This document shows, in pieces, positions 42,404 through 52,565 of a stretch of DNA of 64,000 nucleotides (position 1 is the stretch's first letter; each line of letters begins with the position of its first letter). The DNA lies in the NCBI RefSeq assembly GCF_000718305.1, contig NZ_JOFQ01000009.1, positions 62,001-126,000 of the forward strand, read 5' to 3'. This DNA comes from Streptomyces niger (GTDB lineage Bacteria; Actinomycetota; Actinomycetes; Streptomycetales; Streptomycetaceae). The notes below the pieces were generated by a model. That model was not told the DNA's origin. It did no database searches and worked only from the letters and a program-made list of their open reading frames with translations. Both the position numbers and the translations under genes were made by a program.

Positions 42404-43078
42404 TCAGGCCTTTCCGGCCCATGCCTCCGCGTACGCGCGCGCCGCGGCGCGTGGGTCGGATGCGGCGCAGATGCCCGAGACGATCGCGCCGCCCGCCGCG
42501 CCCGCGGCCCGTAGGAGCGGCATGTCCGGCACGGTCACCCCGCCGATCGCCACCGCCGGCAGCGGCGTGGGCAGCGCCAGCCGGCCGAAGCCCTCGACGC
42601 CCAGCTCCGGCGGCGCGTCCGCCTTGGTGCGGGTGGCGTGCAGTGCGCCGATGCCGACGTAGTCGACCCGGGCCGGCTCCTTGGCGGCGGCCCGCAGCTC
42701 CTCCTCCGTGGCGGCGCTCAGCCCGATCACCGCGTCCGGCCCGACGAGCCCGCGGACGGCGGCCACCGGCAGGTCGGACTGGCCGACGTGCACCCCGGTC
42801 ACCCGTGCCCCGGCCGCACGGGCCGCTAGGAACACGTCCACCCGGTCGTTGACGAACAGCGCGACCCGCTCCGGCAGGACCGCGGCGAGCCGCACCACCG
42901 TCGCCAGGAAGTCCCGCGCATCGCCGTCCTTCTCCCGCACCTGGACGGCGGTGACGCCACCCGCCACGGCCGCCGCGACCGTGCCCGGCACGTCCCGGCC
43001 GCACGCCGCGGCCTGCGCCGCATCCGTGACCAGGTACACCGAGAGGTCCGGTCGTCCGTTCACGGTCGTGCCGGTCAC
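42404..43078 (-). CDS. thiE: Thiamine phosphate synthase ThiE
   Basis: The 224-residue protein is a TIM-barrel thiamine phosphate synthase that joins hydroxymethylpyrimidine diphosphate to thiazole phosphate. It shows [11 protein letters not shown], the diphosphate-binding [64 protein letters not shown] and [11 protein letters not shown] 43078 overlaps the stop of thiM (GTGA), so the two are coupled and share the TPP riboswitch upstream of thiM. The pair salvages thiazole and completes thiamine phosphate. Confidence 0.93.
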
Positions 43079-43911
43079 GCCCACGAGATCGCCGCCCGCT
43101 TGCCGAGCGTCTCCTCGTCCAGGGCGTACAGCGCGTCCAGGAAGGCGGCCGCGAAACCGCCGGGCCCGGCGCTGCGCTCCGCCGCGATCTCGGCGGCCAC
43201 GGTGTAGACCGCCACGGCGGCGGCCGCCGCGGCGAGCCGGTCGGCCCGCGCCGCGGCGTCCGGCGTGGTCGGTGGTGCGAACGCCGCGAGCACCGCGCCC
43301 AGCGCGCAGCCCCCGCCGGTCACCCGCGTCAGCAGCGGGTCACCGTTGGCGACGCGTACGGTCCGCTCGCCGTCGGTGAGCAGGTCCACGGGGCCGGAGA
43401 CCGCGACCACGGCACCGGTCGACCGGGCCAGCTCACCCGCGGCTGCGGCCGCCGACTCGACCTCGTCGGTGGCGTCCACGCCGCGCCCGCCGCCCCCGGT
43501 CCCGGCGAGCGCGATGATCTCCGAGGCGTTGCCGCGGACGACGGCCGGGCCCTGGGGGAGGAGCCGGCGCGCCAGTGCGGTCCGTACGGGCAGCGAGCCG
43601 ACCGCCACCGGGTCCAGCACCCAGGGCGTGCCCGCGGCGGCGGCCGAAGCGACCGCCTCGGTCATGGCGGCGCGCTGCTCGGCGTGCGGGGTGCCCAGGT
43701 TGACCAGCACTCCGGAGGCGGCCCCGGCGAACGGCCCGGCCTCCTCGGGGATGTCCACCATCGCCGGGGCCGCGCCCACCGCGAGCAGGACGTTCGCGGT
43801 GAAGTTGGCGACCACCTGGTTGGTGAGGCACTGCACCAGTGGTGTTTCATGGCGTACGCGGTTGAGAGCCTGCCGGGTGAAGGCGAGCAGGTCGTCGGCC
43901 GGACGCGTCAT
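43075..43911 (-). CDS. thiM: Hydroxyethylthiazole kinase ThiM
   Basis: The 278-residue protein phosphorylates 4-methyl-5-(2-hydroxyethyl)thiazole in the salvage branch. Motifs: [34 protein letters not shown] in part, [21 protein letters not shown] and the ATP/catalytic loop [16 protein letters not shown] with its Cys. ATG 43911 has GGAGG upstream. Directly before it lies a complete THI-box riboswitch, so thiM-thiE is shut off when TPP is plentiful. Confidence 0.93.
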
Positions 43912-43929
43912 AGGGGCATTCCTCCGTGA

Positions 43930-44004
43930 CATTCCCTTCGCTGGTGCGATCCAGATCAGGTTCGACGGGTGTGATCTCAGCCCTTGAGATGGGGCACCCC
44001 GTGT
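43930..44004 (-). promoter_or_regulatory. TPP (THI-box) riboswitch upstream of thiM
   Basis: Read on the minus strand, this contains CGGGGTGCC, GGGCTGAGATCACACCC, then GAACCTGATCTGGAT and the closing ACCAGCGAAGGGA, all hallmarks of the TPP aptamer in the correct order. It ends about 18 bp before the thiM start, so ligand binding probably masks the ribosome binding site, as is usual in actinobacteria. Confidence 0.93.
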
Positions 44005-44070
44005 CTCGTGTGCCTCACCATGTTACCCGCACCCCGTTCCCGAACCGGAACCCCGACCTCTGGAATCCCC

Positions 44071-45441
44071 ATGACCATCGAGAGGCCCGTCTTCGACGGG
44101 CGCATGCCCGCCGGCGCCGGCGACCTGTCCGTCGAACGGCACGGCATCGGCCCGGTGCCCGAGAACAACCGCTACGGCCGGCCCGGTCGCCTCTTCACCG
44201 TGTGGTTCGCGCCCAACCTGACCATGACCGGCGTGTTCACCGGCACCGTCGGCATCGGGCTCGGGCTCGACTTCTGGACGGCGTTCGCCGCGATGGCGCT
44301 CGGCACGCTGCTCGGCGCGGCGCCGTCCGCCTATCTCGGCACGTGGGGGAGCCTCACCGGGGCCGGTCAACTCCCGCTCTCCCGGCTGGCGTTCGGCCGC
44401 GGCGTCGTGCTGCCCGGCATCCTGCAGTGGCTCTCCTCCATCGCCTGGGACGCGCTGATCGGACTGTTCGGCGGGGACGCGCTGGCCCGGCTCGTGGGCT
44501 GGCCGTTCTGGCTGGGCGCGCTGACGGTGCTGGTCCTCCAGGGCGCCGTCGGCGTCCTCGGGTACGAGGCCATCCACCGCCTCCAGACCGTGATGACCTT
44601 CGTGCTCGGCGCGGCCTTCCTCGCGCTGAGCGTGAAGCTCCTGGACGGGGTCCCGCTGCCGTCGGCCGCCAGCGCGCACGGCGCGGACCGGGCCGGCGCG
44701 TTCCTGCTGACCACCACGGTCGCGCTGAGCCTGGCGATCTCCTGGGCCCCGTACGCCTCGGACTTCAGCCGCTACCTGCCGCGCTCGGCGTCCCGGCCGC
44801 GGATGTTCTGGTACACGCTGCTCGGCATGGCCGCCGCGTACCTCTGGGTGCAGACGCTCGGCCTGTGGGCCGCCGGCCTGTTCACCGACCAGACCGCGGC
44901 GGGCGTGCACGCACTGCTCGGCGGCGGGGCGCTGGGCGCCTTCGGGCTGCTGGCCATCGCCGCGTCCGCGGTGTGCAGCAACGCCATGAACGACTACAGC
45001 GGTTCGCTGGCCCTCCAGACGGCCGGGGTCCGCATCCCCCGTCCGCTCGCCGCCGCCGTGGCCGCCGTGCTCGGGTTCCTGCTCGTGCTGTGGATGCACG
45101 CCGCCGACACCACGGCCCGCTTCCAGAACGTGCTGCTCTTCGTCGGCTACTGGATCCCCGGCTTCATCGGCGTCGTCGCCGTCGACTGGCTCGCCCGTGC
45201 CCGGGCGCGCGGCGGCCGGCCGGTCGAGGTGCACGAGGAGTTCGCCCGGCCGCAGCCGTGGTGGCCCGCGGTCCTCGCCTTCGTCGTCGCCTTCGCCGCT
45301 GCCGTGCCCTTCATGGACACGACGCTGTACGTCGGCCCGGTCGCCGAGGCGCTGCACGGCGCGGACCTCGCGTACTTCGTGGCCTTCGTGGTCTCGGTGG
45401 CCGTCTACGCACCGCTGCGGCTGCGGACCCGCAACGGCTGA
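44071..45441 (+). CDS. NCS1-family permease, possibly for hydroxymethylpyrimidine (CytX-like)
   Basis: The 456-residue protein has 12 membrane helices and NCS1 features: VERHGIGPVPENNRYGRPG before helix 1, WFAPNLTMTGVFTG, ISWAPYASDFSRYLP and CSNAMNDYSGSLALQTAG. NCS1 carriers take up cytosine, allantoin, hydantoins or thiamine precursors. It is divergent from the riboswitch-controlled thiM-thiE pair, and CytX-type members beside thiamine genes import hydroxymethylpyrimidine, so that substrate is the best guess. No riboswitch precedes this gene on its own strand, which weakens that idea. Confidence 0.8.
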   Translation: MTIERPVFDGRMPAGAGDLSVERHGIGPVPENNRYGRPGRLFTVWFAPNLTMTGVFTGTVGIGLGLDFWTAFAAMALGTLLGAAPSAYLGTWGSLTGAGQLPLSRLAFGRGVVLPGILQWLSSIAWDALIGLFGGDALARLVGWPFWLGALTVLVLQGAVGVLGYEAIHRLQTVMTFVLGAAFLALSVKLLDGVPLPSAASAHGADRAGAFLLTTTVALSLAISWAPYASDFSRYLPRSASRPRMFWYTLLGMAAAYLWVQTLGLWAAGLFTDQTAAGVHALLGGGALGAFGLLAIAASAVCSNAMNDYSGSLALQTAGVRIPRPLAAAVAAVLGFLLVLWMHAADTTARFQNVLLFVGYWIPGFIGVVAVDWLARARARGGRPVEVHEEFARPQPWWPAVLAFVVAFAAAVPFMDTTLYVGPVAEALHGADLAYFVAFVVSVAVYAPLRLRTRNG

Positions 45442-45472: not shown

Positions 45473-47563
45473 TCAGCCCGGCGGGGGAGCGGCCGGCGGG
45501 CCGTGCGGCGGTACCGGCGTCAGCTTGATCGTCTTGTCCTCGCCGGCGCTGGCCAGCCACCTGCTGTCCGGGCTGAAGGCGACGCCGAAGACGAAGTGGC
45601 CGTGGCGGACGCGCAGCACGCGTTCGCCGCCGGCCGCGTCCCAGACCTCCGCCGTCCGGTCCGTGCTCGCGGTGGCGATCCACCGGCCGTCCGGACTGAA
45701 CGCGACGTCCTTCACCTGCCCGCCGTGGCGCACCAGCAGCAGCTGATGACCGTGGCGCGCGTCCCACACGCGCGCGGTGCCGTCGTCCCCGCAGGCGGCC
45801 AGGCGGTGGCCGTCGGCGGCGAAGCAGACCGCCTTGACGGGGTGCTGGTGGCGCAGCCGCAGCAGGGGATCGCCGCTCGCCGTCCACACCCGTACCGACC
45901 GGTCGGCGCAGGCGGTGGCCAGCAGCTGCCCGTCCGGGCTGTACGCCACGTCGGACACCACCTGGTCGTGCGGGAGGCGCAGCAGCGGCTCCCCGGTGGC
46001 CGCGTCCCAGACCCGGACGGTGCGGTCGGCGGACGCGGTGGCGAGCCGGTGGCCGTCGGGGCTGAACGCGACCCCGAAGACGATGTGGTCGTGGCGTACG
46101 CACAGCAGCTCCTCGCCGTCCGCCGTGGCCCACACCCGCGCGGTGTTGTCGGCGCTGCCGGTGGCCAGCCGCCGGCCGTCCGGGCCGAACTCCGCGGCGA
46201 AGACGGTGGAGAGCCAGCTGACGGCCTGCTCCCAGACCCGGTTGCCGGTCTGCGCGTCCCAGACCCGCACCCACTTCCGCGACCCCGCGGCGAGCCGTCT
46301 GCCGTCGGGGTGGAAGGCGACGCACTGCACCCACTGCCCGGTGTTGAGCACCCGCGCCCGCATGGGGGCTGCGGTCGGCGGCGCGGGGCCCGGCGGTGGT
46401 CCGTCGGGCGCGCGGGGCGGCGCTCCACCGCCGTCGTCCTCCACGTCGTCCTCCTCCGTCGCCGGCACCTCGAAGAGGCCGGCGTCACCACTGCGGAGGT
46501 AGAGCACGGGCGTGGCCCATTCGAGGCTGTCGTCCTTGCCCGCGATGAGCGCGACGCGCCCGACCCGTACCGCCTCGTCGACCGCACGCCCGAAGGCCAG
46601 CGCCTGGTAGAAGGCGGCGGCGAAGCGGGTGGCGGCCTTGTCGGTGACGGCGAACTGCATGGCGACGACGGCGGGGACGGTGCGGACCAGCGTCGCCGCC
46701 GTGCTGGAGAACAGGTCGTGGGAATTGCCCATGCCGCTCTGGCAGCTGTTCAACACCACCAGCTGGGGCCTGGGATGCGCCACACTGATCAGTGGGGCGA
46801 GTGCGCTCGCGTGCAGCAGGTGTTCCCTGCCGTCCTCGTCGGCCAGCGCGATCATGCCTTCCTGCCGGTGCGGGTCGTACGCGCCGTGCCCGATGAAGTG
46901 CAGGATGTCGCAGCCCCGCAGCAGTCGCCGGCGCAGGTCGTCGGTGGTCTGCCCGGCCACCCAGTCCAGCCGTACCCGGCCCTGCTCGATCAGCGACCGC
47001 AGCGCCACCTCCAGCCCGGCCCGCTCGCTGTCGGCGTCCAGCGGCGCCTGCGTGCCGGGCAGCGACGTCATCCCGAGGATGCGCAACGGCAACCCGGCAC
47101 GCAGCGGGGCCGTGGGCTCGGGCATGTCGACGTACCGGACCACGGGCTCGCGCATGCTCAGATAGCCGCCGAGCTCCTTGTCGTACAGCAACTCCCAAGG
47201 CAGTGCGGCCAGTTCGGGGGCGCGGATGCGCAGGACCAGGCGCAGCGTCTCGTTGAGCGCGCCGGCCCGCTGGCGGCTGGAGAGGAACAGGCCGCGGAGC
47301 TGACCGCCGAAGACGGTACGGAAGAGGTGTTCGCCCAGGTCCCGTACGGGACGTTCCAGGCCGAGGGCCGCTGCGCGCGGCGTCGCGGAGGAGGCGAGCA
47401 CGACCGCCTGCAGTTCCGCCAGCCCGGCGCTGATCTGCTCGGCGTCGAGCGTGACGTGCACGCTGTCCTCGCCGGCGGGGGAGGCGACGTCCACGGCGTA
47501 CCGGCCGGCCGAGTTGCTGATCTCCACGACGAAGTCGCAGCTTCCCGGCATGGCGTGGCTCAC
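45473..47563 (-). CDS. CHAT-domain caspase-like protease with seven WD40 repeats
   Basis: The 696-residue protein has an N-terminal region of about 100 residues, then a CHAT domain. The core is LRLVLRIRAPELAALPWELLYD, CDILHFIGHGAYDPHRQ with catalytic His226 and LVVLNSCQSGMGNSHDLF with catalytic Cys274, ending near residue 365. An acidic and Pro-rich linker (about 366-400) follows, then seven WD40 units (AFSPDGxxLATASADRTVRVWD type) that make one propeller. CHAT domains are caspase-family proteases used as effectors in bacterial cell-death systems. GTG 47563 overlaps the stop of the Trypco1 gene. It is the last gene of a four-gene operon. Confidence 0.88.
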   Translation of the reverse strand: MSHAMPGSCDFVVEISNSAGRYAVDVASPAGEDSVHVTLDAEQISAGLAELQAVVLASSATPRAAALGLERPVRDLGEHLFRTVFGGQLRGLFLSSRQRAGALNETLRLVLRIRAPELAALPWELLYDKELGGYLSMREPVVRYVDMPEPTAPLRAGLPLRILGMTSLPGTQAPLDADSERAGLEVALRSLIEQGRVRLDWVAGQTTDDLRRRLLRGCDILHFIGHGAYDPHRQEGMIALADEDGREHLLHASALAPLISVAHPRPQLVVLNSCQSGMGNSHDLFSSTAATLVRTVPAVVAMQFAVTDKAATRFAAAFYQALAFGRAVDEAVRVGRVALIAGKDDSLEWATPVLYLRSGDAGLFEVPATEEDDVEDDGGGAPPRAPDGPPPGPAPPTAAPMRARVLNTGQWVQCVAFHPDGRRLAAGSRKWVRVWDAQTGNRVWEQAVSWLSTVFAAEFGPDGRRLATGSADNTARVWATADGEELLCVRHDHIVFGVAFSPDGHRLATASADRTVRVWDAATGEPLLRLPHDQVVSDVAYSPDGQLLATACADRSVRVWTASGDPLLRLRHQHPVKAVCFAADGHRLAACGDDGTARVWDARHGHQLLLVRHGGQVKDVAFSPDGRWIATASTDRTAEVWDAAGGERVLRVRHGHFVFGVAFSPDSRWLASAGEDKTIKLTPVPPHGPPAAPPPG

Positions 47564-47910
47564 CGGGTGCCCGCGTCGGTCGCCGCGGGCTGCGATCCGG
47601 CCTGCCAGGTCAGGCAGACCTGGAGGTGCGCGTCGGCGCCGGCGGTGACCACGGCGCCGACCCGGGCGGCCAGCGCCACACCGAACTCGACGGTGACGGT
47701 CTCCGGGCGGGCGCGGAGCCCGTCGAGCTGGGCGAGCACGGTCTCCGCCACGGTGCGCACCGTGCCGAGCGAGGCCTCGAAGGTCTGCTCCGCACGCTCG
47801 GCGGCCGCCTGCACCGACATCCCGCGCGTCACCATGTCCGCCGGCGGCCCGCCGGTCCACTCGACCGCGACGGTCCCGCCGTTCTCCAGCGGCAGCTCGA
47901 CGATGTTCAC
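47560..47910 (-). CDS. Trypsin-co-occurring domain 1 (CU044_2847-type) protein
   Basis: The 116-residue protein reads like Trypco1. VELPLENGGTVAVEWTG opens the domain, followed by the helix SVQAAAERAEQTFEASLGTV, VTVEFGVALAARVGAVV and LQVCLTWQAGS at the end. This domain is known from operons with trypsin-like or CHAT proteases in predicted conflict systems, where it may recruit the protease to its target or sense a signal. GTG 47910 has AAGGAG upstream. Its stop overlaps the start of the CHAT gene by 4 bp, so the two are made together. Confidence 0.78.
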   Translation of the reverse strand: MNIVELPLENGGTVAVEWTGGPPADMVTRGMSVQAAAERAEQTFEASLGTVRTVAETVLAQLDGLRARPETVTVEFGVALAARVGAVVTAGADAHLQVCLTWQAGSQPAATDAGTR

Positions 47911-47939
47911 GGACGTACGCTCCTTGCGTCGGGCCGGAT

Positions 47940-48677
47940 TCAGGTGGCCGAGCTCGCGACGGGGCCGGCGGACGTGTGCCACCAGTCGAAGAGGTCGCCG
48001 TAGTACTCGGGGCTGGTGGAGGCCATGCTGAGGATGTCCAGCTCCTCGTCGGTCCAGGCGAGATAGACCTTGCCGGTCGCCAGGTAGCACTCCAGGCGCC
48101 CCGACTCGTAGGCCATCTCGCCGTTGAGGCTGTCCGCCGATTCGCAGGTGTCACTGGCGAAGGAGTGCGTGGCGACGTTGTCCTCGTAGGCCTGCTTCAT
48201 CGTCCCCGTGTCCGAGAACTGCATGTAGACGACGCCTATCGGGGCGCCGCCCGACGGCGTGCAGGACACGTACGCGCTGACCCCGGGCGGGGTGCTCTCA
48301 CCGCCGGACTCGCAGGTGCTTCGCAGGTCGGCCGGCACATGGCTCTTCAGCTCGGCGACGTCGGTGTCCTCCGTCTCCGGCGGCCCGGCCGGGCGTGTGG
48401 TGTGCGGTGTCGCCGGGGTGGAACCCGGCGGGGACGTCACGGGCGGCGAGCTGCCGGCCGCGGGGGGCGGGGGCTTGGGCGGGGTGGGTTTCTCCGCGGT
48501 CAGCAGCACGATGCTCGTGACCATCAGGCCCGCGCCCAGCAGGACGGTCGTCGTCCGGATGACGGGACTGATCCGCGGGAACGAGATCTCACGGATGGCG
48601 AATCCGCTGCCCAGGAGGGCGGCCAGGACCATGAGTCCGCCGAAGCCCAGGAGGATGATTTTCACAGAGGTCGGCAT
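47940..48677 (-). CDS. Membrane protein with extracytoplasmic domain, CHAT operon
   Basis: The 245-residue protein has two membrane helices at its N-terminus (IILLGFGGLMVLAALLGSGF, then TTVLLGAGLMVTSIVLLTA), a Pro/Ser/Thr linker and a soluble domain of about 135 residues. That domain contains four Cys (STCESGG, YVSCTPSG, SDTCESAD, RLECYLATG) that could form two disulfides, so the domain is probably outside the cell. No family is recognised. It is 28 bp after the CYTH-like gene and 29 bp before the Trypco1 gene, and might be the sensor or anchor of the system. Confidence 0.7.
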   Translation of the reverse strand: MPTSVKIILLGFGGLMVLAALLGSGFAIREISFPRISPVIRTTTVLLGAGLMVTSIVLLTAEKPTPPKPPPPAAGSSPPVTSPPGSTPATPHTTRPAGPPETEDTDVAELKSHVPADLRSTCESGGESTPPGVSAYVSCTPSGGAPIGVVYMQFSDTGTMKQAYEDNVATHSFASDTCESADSLNGEMAYESGRLECYLATGKVYLAWTDEELDILSMASTSPEYYGDLFDWWHTSAGPVASSAT

Positions 48678-48705
48678 GTTTCCCTCCGGAGCGGTCTCGC
48701 GCGCC

Positions 48706-49533
48706 TCAGGTGGCAGGCCGCGCGCGCAGCAGCGTTTCCAGGACCCGGCGGGTCTTCGTCTCCTGCTTGAGGTCGGGCTCCAGGCCGAGGCCCCGCACGA
48801 GGGCCTGCAGCGAGGCCTGGACCACCTCGGCCCCGTCCGGGGCGACCCGCTCGGAGATCTCCAGCCAGTCCAGCGGTTCCTCCCCCGGGCCCGGACCGGC
48901 CGATTCGGCAGCGGAGGCGGCGAACGACCAGCGCTCCAGGGTCAGTTCGTGGTGGTTCAGGCGTACGCCGTGCCAGCGCACCGCACGGACGGGACCGAGG
49001 ACACGCAGCGTCCGGAAGTCGACCCGCACGTCCGCGCACTCGGCGAGGAACGCCCGCTGCCGCCGGGAGAACACCGTACGCAGCGGGTTGGCGCCCGAGG
49101 TGACGGCATCGACGGCCGGCCGGCCGCAGTCGGACGTCAACGAGGCGGCGAGCACCCTGTTCTCGGCGTGCCCGGCGTTCCCGGCGGACCAGTCCTCCTC
49201 CAGGCGCAGGGTGTCCCCGTCCTCCTCCCGGAAGCGCAGCCACCGCCGGCTGAGCCGGGCCCGCCGGCAGGGGCGGAGCTTCACGGTGGCGTCCCCGTCG
49301 CCGCGGCCGTGCCCGGCGTCCGCGCGCAACCGCAGGATCACGCCGCCGTCCAGCAGCGCCGGCGTCCCCGGCCCGCGCCCCCGCGGCGGCGCCTCGCAGA
49401 AGTGGACGTGGCGCCGGATTCCCCCATCACCCGGCGCCAACGCCTCGGCGGCCGCTGCCGCCTGCGCGGCGGAGAACGTCATCTTGATCTCGACCGAGTC
49501 GAGCCGTGGTCCGGCCCCGTGCGACTCCGGCAT
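48706..49533 (-). CDS. CYTH-like (triphosphate tunnel) protein, degenerate
   Basis: The 275-residue protein looks like a CYTH beta-barrel. DSVEIKMTFS near the start corresponds to the ExExK strand, but with Ser in the first position. GVILRLRADAG is the strand with paired Arg, ATVKLRPCRRARLSRRW the basic strand, and RFREEDGDTLRLEEDW and VRVDFRTLRVLGPVRA later strands. Intact CYTH proteins bind triphosphates with divalent metal. It is the first gene of the CHAT operon and may bind a nucleotide signal. ATG 49533 has AAGGGGG upstream. The fold is inferred from strand motifs only. Confidence 0.55.
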   Translation of the reverse strand: MPESHGAGPRLDSVEIKMTFSAAQAAAAAEALAPGDGGIRRHVHFCEAPPRGRGPGTPALLDGGVILRLRADAGHGRGDGDATVKLRPCRRARLSRRWLRFREEDGDTLRLEEDWSAGNAGHAENRVLAASLTSDCGRPAVDAVTSGANPLRTVFSRRQRAFLAECADVRVDFRTLRVLGPVRAVRWHGVRLNHHELTLERWSFAASAAESAGPGPGEEPLDWLEISERVAPDGAEVVQASLQALVRGLGLEPDLKQETKTRRVLETLLRARPAT

Positions 49534-49730
49534 CGGATGATCCCCCTTCGCCCTGCCGCCTGCGCGAGACCCCAGTGAAGCGGTGTGTCGCGGCGGGGCG
49601 CTTCCGGGAACTCCCCCGTATCTCGCGGCTTTCGACGGCAACGCCGGGAGGAGCATCATGAGGGCAGCGGCACGGAGCCGGGCGCCGCGGCGCCCCGGCC
49701 ACGGTGCGTGGGGACGTCCAGGGGGCGGAC

Positions 49731-52565
49731 ATGAGTGGGGGACCTCCGCAACAGACCGATCGACGCGTGGCGTACGGGAGTTCCCGTGGGCTGGTGGGGC
49801 GGGGCCGCGAGCGCCGGCTGATCGACGACCTGCTCCTCGCGGGCGCGGACGGCGGCGCCGCCCTGCTGCTCTGGGGCGAACCGGGCATTGGCAAGACGGC
49901 GCTGCTCGACTACGCGGCGGAGCGCGCCCGGGCGATGGGCGGCGACGGCGCGGCAGGCCACGGCCGCCCTGCCCCGTACGTCCTGCACGCCCGCGGCATC
50001 GAAACGGAGACCGTCCTGCCGTTCGCCACACTGGCCGACCTGCTGGTGCCGTTTTCGGCGCGTTTCAGGGACCTCCCGGGGGTGCAGCGGGCGGCGCTGG
50101 AGGCCTGTCTGGCACTGTCCGGCGAGCCCCTGGACAACCCCTACGCGGCCTGCATGGGAGCGCTGAACGTGCTGGTCGCGATGGGGGAGGAGCGTCCGGT
50201 CGTGGTCCTCGTCGACGACCTGCACTGGGCGGACCCCTCCTCGCAGCGCACCCTGCTCTTCATCGCCCGACGGCTGACCTGTACCCGCGTCGCGCTCGCC
50301 GCCACCTCGCGGGAGGACCACGGCGAGTCGACCGTCCGCAGCGTGCCCGCAGTGGAGCTCACCGGGCTGGCCGCCACCGACTGCGCCGCGCTGGTGCGCG
50401 ACGCCGGGCTGCACATGGTGCCGGCCGTGCTGGACGAGCTGGTGGCCATCAGTGACGGCAATCCGCTGGCACTGCTGGAACTCGCCGGCGGCCTGACGCC
50501 ACGTCAGGCCCGGGGTGAGTCGCCGCTCGCCGATCCGCCCTCGTTCGGGCGCCACCTGGAGCGGGCCTGGGCGGCGCGGATGGACGGCCTCCCGGTCGCG
50601 TCACGCAAGGCCCTGGTCGTGCTCGCCGCCAGCCGGTCCACCGCGTCGGACACCCTGAGCGACGCGCTGACCGCCGACGGCCTGGCCTTGGCGGACCTGT
50701 CCCCGGCCGAGGAGCACGGCCTGGTCGTGGCGACCGCCGGTGGCCTGGACTTCCGGCACCCCATCCTGCGCCCGCTGGTGCTCGCACGGGCACCGCTGGC
50801 CCACCGGCTGGCCGCCTTCCAGGCGCTCGCCGAGGTGACCACCGGGCCGTTGCGTGCCTGGTACCGGGCGGCCGCGAGCCCCGGCCCCGACGAGACGGCC
50901 GCGGCCGCCCTGGCCGAGGCCGCGCAGGAGGCCCGGCGGCGCAGCGCGTTCGAGGAATCGGCGCTGGCCTGGCGGCGTGCCGCGGCGCTGACCCCGGAGC
51001 GCGCCACCCGCGCCGAGCGGCTGCGGCGAGCCGCGGGGGACGCCTTCATCGGGGGCTCCCCGTCCGGACCCCAGTGGTGCGAGGAGGCGCTGCGGATCAC
51101 CACCGACCCGGCCGTACGGGCCGACATCGAGCTGCTGCTCGGCCGGATGTACACCTGGAACGGCGATCCGGCCCGTGCGTACGGCCTGCTGGTCGAGGCC
51201 GCCGACGCGATCCGCCCCACCGACCCGGCGCGGGCCTGCATCCTGTACGCCGACGCGGTGGTGCCCGCCCGCATGGACGGCCACGTCATGGACGCGGTAC
51301 GGATCGCCGAGGTCTCCCTCGGGCTGGCCTCGGAGACCGGGCCCGAACGGTGGCTCAGCCTGACGATGCTGGGCGCCGCGCTGGTCCTGGCCGGACAGGT
51401 GGAGCGGGGCGCGGCGATGCTGGACGCGGCCGACGGCCACGGCACCGGCGACCGGGTGCGCAACCAGCAGCTGTACGCGCTGGCGGGGCAGGCCTGGAGC
51501 CGCGCCGAGGAACCGGCCCGCAGCCGGCGCCTGTTGAACACCGCGATCGACTCGGCCCGGCGGCACAGCGCGCCCGGCGTGCTGCCCTTCACCCTCACCA
51601 TCCGCAGCGAGCTGGAGACCAGGGTCGGCCGATGGACGCCCGCGTACGGGGACGCGATGGAGGCGCTGCGCTGGGCGGCGGAACTGGGACAGCTCACCAG
51701 CGTCGGATACGCGCTGTACTGCCTCGCGCGGCTGGACGCGCTGCGCGGGGACCGGGCGCACTGCGAGGAGCAGGTGGTGCGCGCCCGGCGGGAGGTCGGC
51801 GCGTGCGGCATCGGCTGCATGGAGCTGTACCTGACCGCGGCGGTGGGCCTGTCGGCGCTGGCGCACGGCGACCACGAGATGGCCGCCGACCAGCTCGAAG
51901 AGAGCTTTGCGCACGCGGTGGCGCAGGGCGTGGGGAACCCCGAGGTGGTCCCGTTCGCCGCCGATCTCGTCGAGGCCCACATGCGGGCCGGGCGCGCCGC
52001 GCGGGCCGCCGAGGTCACCGACTGGCTGGCGGACCGGGCCCGGGACACCGGGCTCGCATCGGTGGAGGCGGCCGCGGCGCGCTGCCGGGGGTTGCTCGCG
52101 GAGTCGTGGGAGGGGGCCGAGTCGCACTTCGGCACGGCGCTCAAGGCGCACCAGCGGACCAACGCGCCGTTCGAGCGCGCCCGTACGCTGCTGTGCTGGG
52201 CCGAGATGTGCCGGCGGCTGCGCCGGCCGGCCGTCGCCCGCTCCCCGCTGACCTCGGCGCTGGCCACCTTCGAGTCGCTGGGCGCGGTGCCCTGGGCGCG
52301 CCGGGCGGCGGGCGAACTGGCGGCGGCCGGTGGCGCGCCGCGGGGCAGGCCGGCCGGGCGCGGGGCGCTGGAGTTGCTCACTCCGCAGGAGTTCCAGGTG
52401 TCCCGGGCCGTGGCGCGGGGCCTGAACAACACCGAGGCGGCCGCTTCGCTCTTCGTCTCCCGCAAGACGGTCGAGGCGCATCTCACCCGCGTCTACCGCA
52501 AGCTCAAGGTGCGTTCGCGGACCGATCTCACCCGCATCCTGGCGGCCGCCGACCTGGTCGACTGA
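49731..52565 (+). CDS. Large ATP-binding LuxR regulator (LAL/STAND type)
   Basis: The 944-residue protein has an N-terminal STAND ATPase module with Walker A GEPGIGKTALLD (about 49-60) and Walker B VVVLVDDLHWADPSS. A long helical, TPR-like middle (about 330-860) follows, then a C-terminal LuxR helix-turn-helix: LTPQEFQVSRAVARGLNNTE and FVSRKTVEAHLTRVYRKLKV. Such LAL regulators activate metabolic clusters after ligand and ATP binding. ATG 49731 follows GGGGGCGG. It is divergent from the CHAT operon, with a 197-bp shared promoter, so it may control that operon. A hairpin follows. Confidence 0.88.
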   Translation: MSGGPPQQTDRRVAYGSSRGLVGRGRERRLIDDLLLAGADGGAALLLWGEPGIGKTALLDYAAERARAMGGDGAAGHGRPAPYVLHARGIETETVLPFATLADLLVPFSARFRDLPGVQRAALEACLALSGEPLDNPYAACMGALNVLVAMGEERPVVVLVDDLHWADPSSQRTLLFIARRLTCTRVALAATSREDHGESTVRSVPAVELTGLAATDCAALVRDAGLHMVPAVLDELVAISDGNPLALLELAGGLTPRQARGESPLADPPSFGRHLERAWAARMDGLPVASRKALVVLAASRSTASDTLSDALTADGLALADLSPAEEHGLVVATAGGLDFRHPILRPLVLARAPLAHRLAAFQALAEVTTGPLRAWYRAAASPGPDETAAAALAEAAQEARRRSAFEESALAWRRAAALTPERATRAERLRRAAGDAFIGGSPSGPQWCEEALRITTDPAVRADIELLLGRMYTWNGDPARAYGLLVEAADAIRPTDPARACILYADAVVPARMDGHVMDAVRIAEVSLGLASETGPERWLSLTMLGAALVLAGQVERGAAMLDAADGHGTGDRVRNQQLYALAGQAWSRAEEPARSRRLLNTAIDSARRHSAPGVLPFTLTIRSELETRVGRWTPAYGDAMEALRWAAELGQLTSVGYALYCLARLDALRGDRAHCEEQVVRARREVGACGIGCMELYLTAAVGLSALAHGDHEMAADQLEESFAHAVAQGVGNPEVVPFAADLVEAHMRAGRAARAAEVTDWLADRARDTGLASVEAAAARCRGLLAESWEGAESHFGTALKAHQRTNAPFERARTLLCWAEMCRRLRRPAVARSPLTSALATFESLGAVPWARRAAGELAAAGGAPRGRPAGRGALELLTPQEFQVSRAVARGLNNTEAAASLFVSRKTVEAHLTRVYRKLKVRSRTDLTRILAAADLVD

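What the first reader, a model, noticed from the sequence alone, without database searches (positions are those of the whole stretch)
45473..49533. Four-gene CHAT-WD40 / Trypco1 / membrane / CYTH-like operon: candidate uncharacterised conflict or cell-death system
Four genes lie on one strand with 28-bp, 29-bp and -4-bp junctions: a degenerate CYTH-like barrel, a two-helix membrane protein with four extracytoplasmic Cys, a Trypco1 protein and a CHAT protease (His226, Cys274) fused to a seven-blade WD40 propeller. CHAT proteases and Trypco1 are known (established) from predicted NTP-dependent conflict systems. The combination with a CYTH-like protein, whose family binds triphosphates, suggests a nucleotide signal that licenses the protease, with WD40 as a platform and the membrane protein as sensor or target. 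A 944-residue STAND LuxR regulator is divergent. The functional model is inference.
Basis: partly seen in the sequence, partly recalled or inferred. Interest (0 to 1): 0.78.

Follow-up and report, generated by a model that had tools for sequence, protein, structure and literature searches.

The report
Caspase-like protease operon with triphosphate-sensor-like gene
In a soil bacterium, a gene for a protein that looks like a switched-off triphosphate-handling enzyme, driven by its own regulator, sits in one operon with a caspase-like protease and its helpers; the pairing recurs in a few relatives and may be a switch that turns the protease on.

Summary

The four genes stand together in only 2 of 15 close loci (window, G139). 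The conserved unit is the LuxR-CYTH pair (14 of 14 assessable close loci) with a shared palindrome before CYTH; three distant loci not used to define it carry the same core. A CHAT-WD40 gene lies in the CYTH operon in 5 of 14 assessable loci, in two architectures from different CHAT clades, so the link formed or was exchanged at least twice. Trypco1 and an unannotated small protein (C36) never share a CHAT locus (11 and 13 of 31).

Most likely: a LuxR-controlled, ligand-tuned caspase-like protease module. Immunity or cell death is plausible but unproven; no defence context was found.

The parts
48706..49533 (-). CYTH/triphosphate-tunnel-fold protein P0001 (275 aa), family without a Pfam model; E15, K17, R68, R70, E225 kept, S13 and S227 in the assigned places of the metal-2 glutamates
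47940..48677 (-). membrane protein P0002 (245 aa): two N-terminal helices, Pro-rich linker, extracytoplasmic alpha/beta domain with four invariant Cys, weakly like TiME/PknH/LpqN
47560..47910 (-). Trypco1 protein P0003 (116 aa)
   Evidence: PF19493 E 8.2e-22
45473..47563 (-). CHAT-WD40 protein P0004 (696 aa)
46502..47338 (-). CHAT peptidase domain (residues 76-354), His226 and Cys274
45512..46351 (-). WD40 propeller region (about residues 405-684, limits approximate)
49731..52565 (+). LuxR-STAND (LAL-type) regulator P0005 (944 aa; start may be GTG 49794): AAA_16 with GEPGIGKT, C-terminal GerE helix-turn-helix
49600..49615 (-). conserved palindromic element GGGAGTTCCCGGAAGC upstream of the CYTH gene, putative LuxR operator near the -35 position
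49572..49579 (-). TTCACTGG, window version of a conserved TTGAATGG-like block about 20 bp downstream of the palindrome (possible -10 region)
49770..49785 (-). second, imperfect copy GGGAACTCCCGTACGC, in the window only, inside or just before the start of the LuxR gene depending on its start codon

Best explanation
An activator-controlled, ligand-tuned caspase-like protease module. (1, inferred from conserved DNA) The divergent LuxR-STAND ATPase binds a GGGAnnTCCC palindrome and switches on the operon. (2, fold by prediction, chemistry inferred) The CYTH protein is a triphosphate-tunnel pseudoenzyme that binds a triphosphate-bearing ligand through one metal without hydrolysing it, and so reports or buffers that ligand. 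(3, domains shown, activity inferred) The CHAT domain is the cysteine protease, WD40 docks partners or substrates, Trypco1 is an adaptor that holds or releases the protease. (4, inferred) The two-helix membrane protein anchors the complex, senses the envelope, or is its substrate. The LuxR-CYTH pair is the old core; the protease cassette is an optional part lost, gained or exchanged right behind CYTH. Whether it serves immunity, cell death or a stress or developmental programme is left open.
Against: 9 of 14 assessable LuxR-CYTH loci have no CHAT beside them, and 26 of 31 CHAT loci have no CYTH, so neither needs the other. No activity, ligand or protein contact was tested. Residue assignment rests on the ends of structural alignments and on motif shape, not on a residue-by-residue table; profile searches found no canonical CYTH. 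Loss of both motifs does not prove inactivity: AtTTM1/2 lack ExExK and ExE, and AtTTM2 shows pyrophosphatase activity in vitro (PMC8233210). Trypco1 is missing from some close CHAT loci (L092, L093). The motif is not enriched in the own genome: 3 exact matches, and at one mismatch 73 against 75 for the reversed control. The co-occurrence P value (0.001) ignores kinship.
Confidence: 0.4

Rival explanations
1. Anti-phage or cell-death (conflict) system in the narrow sense: infection changes a nucleotide pool, CYTH senses it, CHAT kills the cell or cuts a phage protein.
For: CHAT and Trypco proteins belong to predicted conflict systems (PMC7159879 and PMC10907252, passages); presence/absence at one locus: L041 and L120 have CYTH followed by azlD, L043 has the three-gene cassette between them; weak PADLOC CHAT matches.
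Against: No MoxR, vWA, phage or other defence gene among the 10 flanking window genes scanned; several relatives sit at recurring housekeeping sites (beside mqnA; beside leuB/ilvE-like genes). No phenotype known.
Confidence: 0.25
2. Regulated proteolysis for stress or development: the LuxR-STAND activator and CYTH sense a metabolic state, CHAT cleaves a cellular regulator or envelope protein.
For: LAL/LuxR regulators mostly control metabolism and differentiation in Streptomyces (PMC9774167, passages); LuxR-CYTH persists without CHAT in 9 of 14 loci; membrane partner with an envelope-type domain.
Against: Patchy cassette (5 of 14) is unlike a conserved developmental gene; no developmental gene nearby.
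Confidence: 0.25
3. CYTH is still an enzyme with altered chemistry (pyrophosphatase, phosphotransfer or cyclase-like) and makes or removes the signal.
For: Invariant Ser227 and Glu200, Trp202 near-invariant; AtTTM2-type activity without the motifs.
Against: Both assigned metal-2 glutamates are lost in the whole alignment. R68 and R70 are kept, unlike class IV cyclases, which replace the central Arg (PMC8233210). Position 66 is I, V, T or A, not the W/Y of ThTPases.
Confidence: 0.2
4. Chance or passenger neighbourhood: CYTH and the CHAT cassette merely share an insertion site and a promoter.
For: They separate freely (9 of 14, 26 of 31).
Against: Two architectures, two CHAT clades, tight junctions (28/29/-4 bp here; about 20-25 bp CYTH to CHAT in L037, L040 and L119); togetherness in 4 of 5 genomes with both.
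Confidence: 0.15

Closest known systems
CYTH / triphosphate tunnel metalloenzymes (AtTTM3, SaTTM, YgiF, ThTPase, class IV cyclase)
   Same: Eight-stranded-tunnel type fold, E and K of the N-terminal motif, RxR, first Glu of ExE
   Different: First Glu of ExExK and second Glu of ExE replaced throughout the alignment; no Pfam match; own family of about 250 aa
CHAT caspase-like proteases (TPR-CHAT of Craspase; SAVED-CHAT)
   Same: CHAT domain with His/Cys dyad; PADLOC SAVED_CHAT E 3.2e-17
   Different: Fused to WD40, not to TPR or SAVED; no Cas gene among the flanking genes scanned
Trypco1-trypsin vWA-MoxR ternary conflict systems (Kaur et al. 2020, PMC7159879)
   Same: Trypco1 beside a peptidase gene
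   Different: Peptidase is CHAT, not trypsin; no vWA, MoxR or VMAP among the genes scanned
DGR 2 locus of Thiohalocapsa PB-PSB1 (PMC10907252, passages)
   Same: A Trypco-type adapter (Trypco2) beside a CHAT protein
   Different: There a diversified CHAT-TIR target with DGR; here WD40, CYTH and LuxR, no DGR looked for
LAL / PAS-LuxR regulators and their operator CTVGGGAWWTCCCBAG (PMC9774167, passages)
   Same: GerE helix-turn-helix; GGGAnnTCCC core upstream of the controlled gene
   Different: Flanks differ (GAAGC tail); this regulator has a STAND ATPase, not a PAS domain

Membership tests
CYTH/TTM superfamily (fold) | triphosphate tunnel beta-barrel fold | tested here: met
canonical CYTH enzyme (PF01928) | N-terminal ExExK | tested here: not met
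   position 13 is S, A, G, P, V, T, H or N in 64 of 64; E15 59, K17 59 plus 5 R
canonical CYTH enzyme (PF01928) | ExE on the last barrel strand | tested here: not met
   E225-x-S227, Ser in 64 of 64; assignment by motif and strand order
canonical CYTH enzyme (PF01928) | Pfam CYTH match | tested here: not met
   no family at E<=1; the own genome has one canonical CYTH elsewhere
thiamine triphosphatase | W/YxRxR | tested here: not met
   RxR kept, position 66 I38 V19 T6 A1
canonical CYTH enzyme (PF01928) | triphosphate hydrolysis | not testable with these tools
   needs purified protein
CHAT protease | CHAT domain and His/Cys dyad | tested here: met
CHAT protease | peptidase activity | not testable with these tools
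Trypco1 | PF19493 match | tested here: met
   78.1 bits, cut-off 24.6
Trypco1-trypsin ternary (vWA-MoxR) system | neighbouring trypsin-like peptidase, vWA, MoxR | tested here: not met
   none among the operon, the LuxR gene and 10 flanking genes
EACC1-associated caspase | NCBIfam NF047832 above cut-off | tested here: not met
   19.2 bits, cut-off 140
LAL (large ATP-binding LuxR) regulator | ATPase domain, C-terminal LuxR HTH, 900-1000 aa | tested here: met
   AAA_16, GerE, 944 aa
Mog1/PsbP-type envelope domain (TiME, PknH, LpqN) | fold of the C-terminal domain of P0002 | tested here: inconclusive

The most novel reading that the evidence does not exclude
A new class of nucleotide-licensed bacterial caspase-like protease: a pseudoenzyme of the triphosphate-tunnel fold, kept with its own STAND-LuxR activator and operator, serves as the ligand sensor, and different CHAT-WD40 proteases with interchangeable adaptors (Trypco1 or the undescribed C36) and membrane partners plug in behind it.
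Probability: 0.25. Interest if true: 0.8.

Novelty: new variant of a known kind. Interest (0 to 1): 0.52.

Why it matters
CHAT proteases of bacteria mostly lack a known trigger. A small, soluble CYTH pseudoenzyme with a readable triphosphate pocket, in one operon with a CHAT protease and with a predicted operator, gives a trigger that can be tested by ligand binding and by proteolysis assays. It would also give a use for a catalytically emptied triphosphate-tunnel fold, and it names a small protein (C36) that seems to take the place of Trypco1.

Tried and rejected
Conserved four-gene operon across actinomycetes: rejected; 2 of 15 close loci have all four.

Thiamine link: the operon lies beside thiE, thiM, a TPP riboswitch and a cytosine/thiamine-type permease, and CYTH includes thiamine triphosphatases; rejected because the ThTPase signature is absent and the relatives' neighbours are other genes.

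C36 as a divergent Trypco1: hhalign gave no similarity (probability 0.1 %; shallow alignments). C36 as EACC1: the Pfam scan gave no match above its cut-off; not tested with a profile.

Regulon search in the own genome with the palindrome: no excess over the reversed control at one mismatch.

Sequence-profile route to CYTH: A1 against PDB sequences found no CYTH chain; A1 against the own genome's canonical CYTH-CHAD protein gave probability 0.6 %. Only the fold comparison shows the relation.

Distribution of the membrane protein over the genus by direct search: not completed (below). Its spread is known only from 10 database relatives and from CHAT and CYTH loci.

Counts are lower bounds: only 6-8 candidates per genome were scored. 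A1 holds 64 of the 95 proteins; I left out fusions, fragments and near-duplicates by eye.

Full report
WHAT IS THERE. Four genes lie on the minus strand: 49533-48706 (275 aa), 48677-47940 (245 aa), 47910-47560 (116 aa) and 47563-45473 (696 aa), with gaps of 28, 29 and -4 bp. The divergent gene 49731-52565 encodes 944 aa with AAA_16 (Walker A GEPGIGKT at residue 49) and a C-terminal GerE domain. Pfam names the third protein Trypco1 (E 8.2e-22) and the fourth CHAT (E 1.3e-27) plus seven WD40 stretches; the first two have no match at E<=1. The genome is a Streptomyces by inference: relatives of the same genus code carry contigs of the same lengths as named Streptomyces records (for example 11,540,835 and 22,077 bases).

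WHERE IT OCCURS. P0001 matches 36 of 295 genus genomes; 14 of 392 at E<=1e-40. I fetched the neighbourhoods of the matches and of the new ones, plus two named loci. Fifteen distinct close loci result: W, L003, L004, L035-L043, L118, L119, L120. Six-frame searches with profiles built here show the LuxR-STAND gene divergent from CYTH in 14 of 14 assessable loci (the contig of L043 starts inside CYTH). A CHAT-WD40 gene lies in the CYTH operon in 5 of 14 (L039 ends at a contig edge): W and L043 with membrane protein, Trypco1 and CHAT-WD40; L037, L040 and L119 with CHAT-WD40, then C36, a CD225 protein and a DUF2752 protein. In nine loci CYTH stands without CHAT. Of 24 distant CYTH loci three have the LuxR gene (L044, L045, L047) and none CHAT. 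L043 and L120/L041 share the flank azlD, azlC, xre, csp, mqnA (azlC is cut from my gene list in L043); the three-gene cassette is present in L043 and absent in the others.

TREES. In the CYTH tree the C36-type loci form one clade (100/100); the window and that clade branch off near the base, with low support for their order, and L043 lies within the clade of mostly CHAT-free mqnA-site loci (94/93). Either the link is old and was often lost, with exchange of the cassette type, or it formed more than once. In the CHAT tree (31 rows: 30 places plus L119) Trypco1-linked (11) and C36-linked (13) genes need one change; the CYTH link needs two. Seven have neither; one of these is at a contig edge. 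No fetched locus has both.

THE OPERATOR. Aligning the 14 intergenic regions showed one well-conserved block, GGGAnnTCCCSGAMGC, followed after about 20 bp by a TTGAATGG-like block. As the pattern was read off these 14 sequences, 14 of 14 is by construction. Independent support: the three distant LuxR-CYTH loci carry GGGGACTTCCCCGATGCG, GGGAGTTCCCTGATGCG and GGGAGTTCCCTGTTGCG just before CYTH, where the core alone occurs 130 times in 1,412,487 bases, both strands, or about 0.1 expected in their 1,298 bases. All 13 full matches in that sequence are LuxR-CYTH loci. In the window the exact copy is at 49600-49615(-). The core is that of the PAS-LuxR operator CTVGGGAWWTCCCBAG, which lies in the -35 region of its targets (PMC9774167, passages). 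For one LAL regulator, SCO6993, palindromes were bound but no consensus could be given (PMC9628970, passages). A genome-wide search shows no regulon (3 exact matches; 73 against 75 control matches at one mismatch).

CO-OCCURRENCE. Of 295 genomes 10 have close CYTH, 28 the CHAT clade, 5 both (0.95 expected, P 0.001); in 4 of the 5 they are together. Kinship is not corrected, and the adjacency odds assume 7,000 genes.

LITERATURE. Trypco1 was defined by its neighbourhood with trypsin in vWA-MoxR systems (PMC7159879, passages), and a CHAT protein beside Trypco2 is described in Thiohalocapsa (PMC10907252, passages). Searches for CYTH with CHAT, caspase or Trypco1 (15 of 16 papers listed, one of which, PMC10910872, holds CYTH and caspase and was not opened), for CHAT, WD40 and Streptomyces (none), for CYTH in Streptomyces and for triphosphate tunnel with defence terms (10 of 408 listed) showed no description of this pairing in what I saw. 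The library holds open-licence papers only.

VERDICT. Real operon, real CYTH fold, real but optional link to the protease. The best reading is a LuxR-controlled, ligand-tuned protease module; a conflict role is one of two open readings.

Noticed in passing
L040:11814-12278, L037:5869-6333, L119:11458-11922 and 10 further CHAT loci: C36, an unannotated protein of about 150 aa behind 13 of 31 CHAT-WD40 genes, never in a fetched locus together with Trypco1; only 4 close database relatives.
   Followed up: partly
L040:12350-13092 and L119:12023-12795: CD225 (interferon-induced-transmembrane-type) and DUF2752 genes follow C36 in the CYTH-linked C36 loci; a database protein (P0059) fuses part of CYTH to CD225.
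   Followed up: partly
P0084, P0085, P0095 (database proteins): CYTH-like family members fused to a HAD-type hydrolase domain (name from the source), which may hint at a phosphate-related ligand.
   Followed up: no
window 42404-45441: thiE, thiM, a TPP riboswitch (43915-44011, minus) and a cytosine/purine/thiamine-type permease next to the operon.
   Followed up: partly
L094-L098: In the 56-58 % CHAT relatives Trypco1 is divergent from a weakly similar membrane-protein gene and CHAT-WD40, a rearranged version of the same cassette (L097: no membrane hit).
   Followed up: partly
L068 (G244): Fragments of both the LuxR and the CYTH gene next to each other: the pair seems to decay together.
   Followed up: no
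window 49770-49785: Second imperfect palindrome GGGAACTCCCGTACGC near the LuxR start, in the window only; it would favour the GTG 49794 start if it is an operator.
   Followed up: no
114 tables: CYTH P0033 and membrane protein P0102 both report a longest contig of 2279 bases, and CYTH P0016 and C36 P0111 both 98,845 bases (same named strain), suggesting further linked loci.
   Followed up: no
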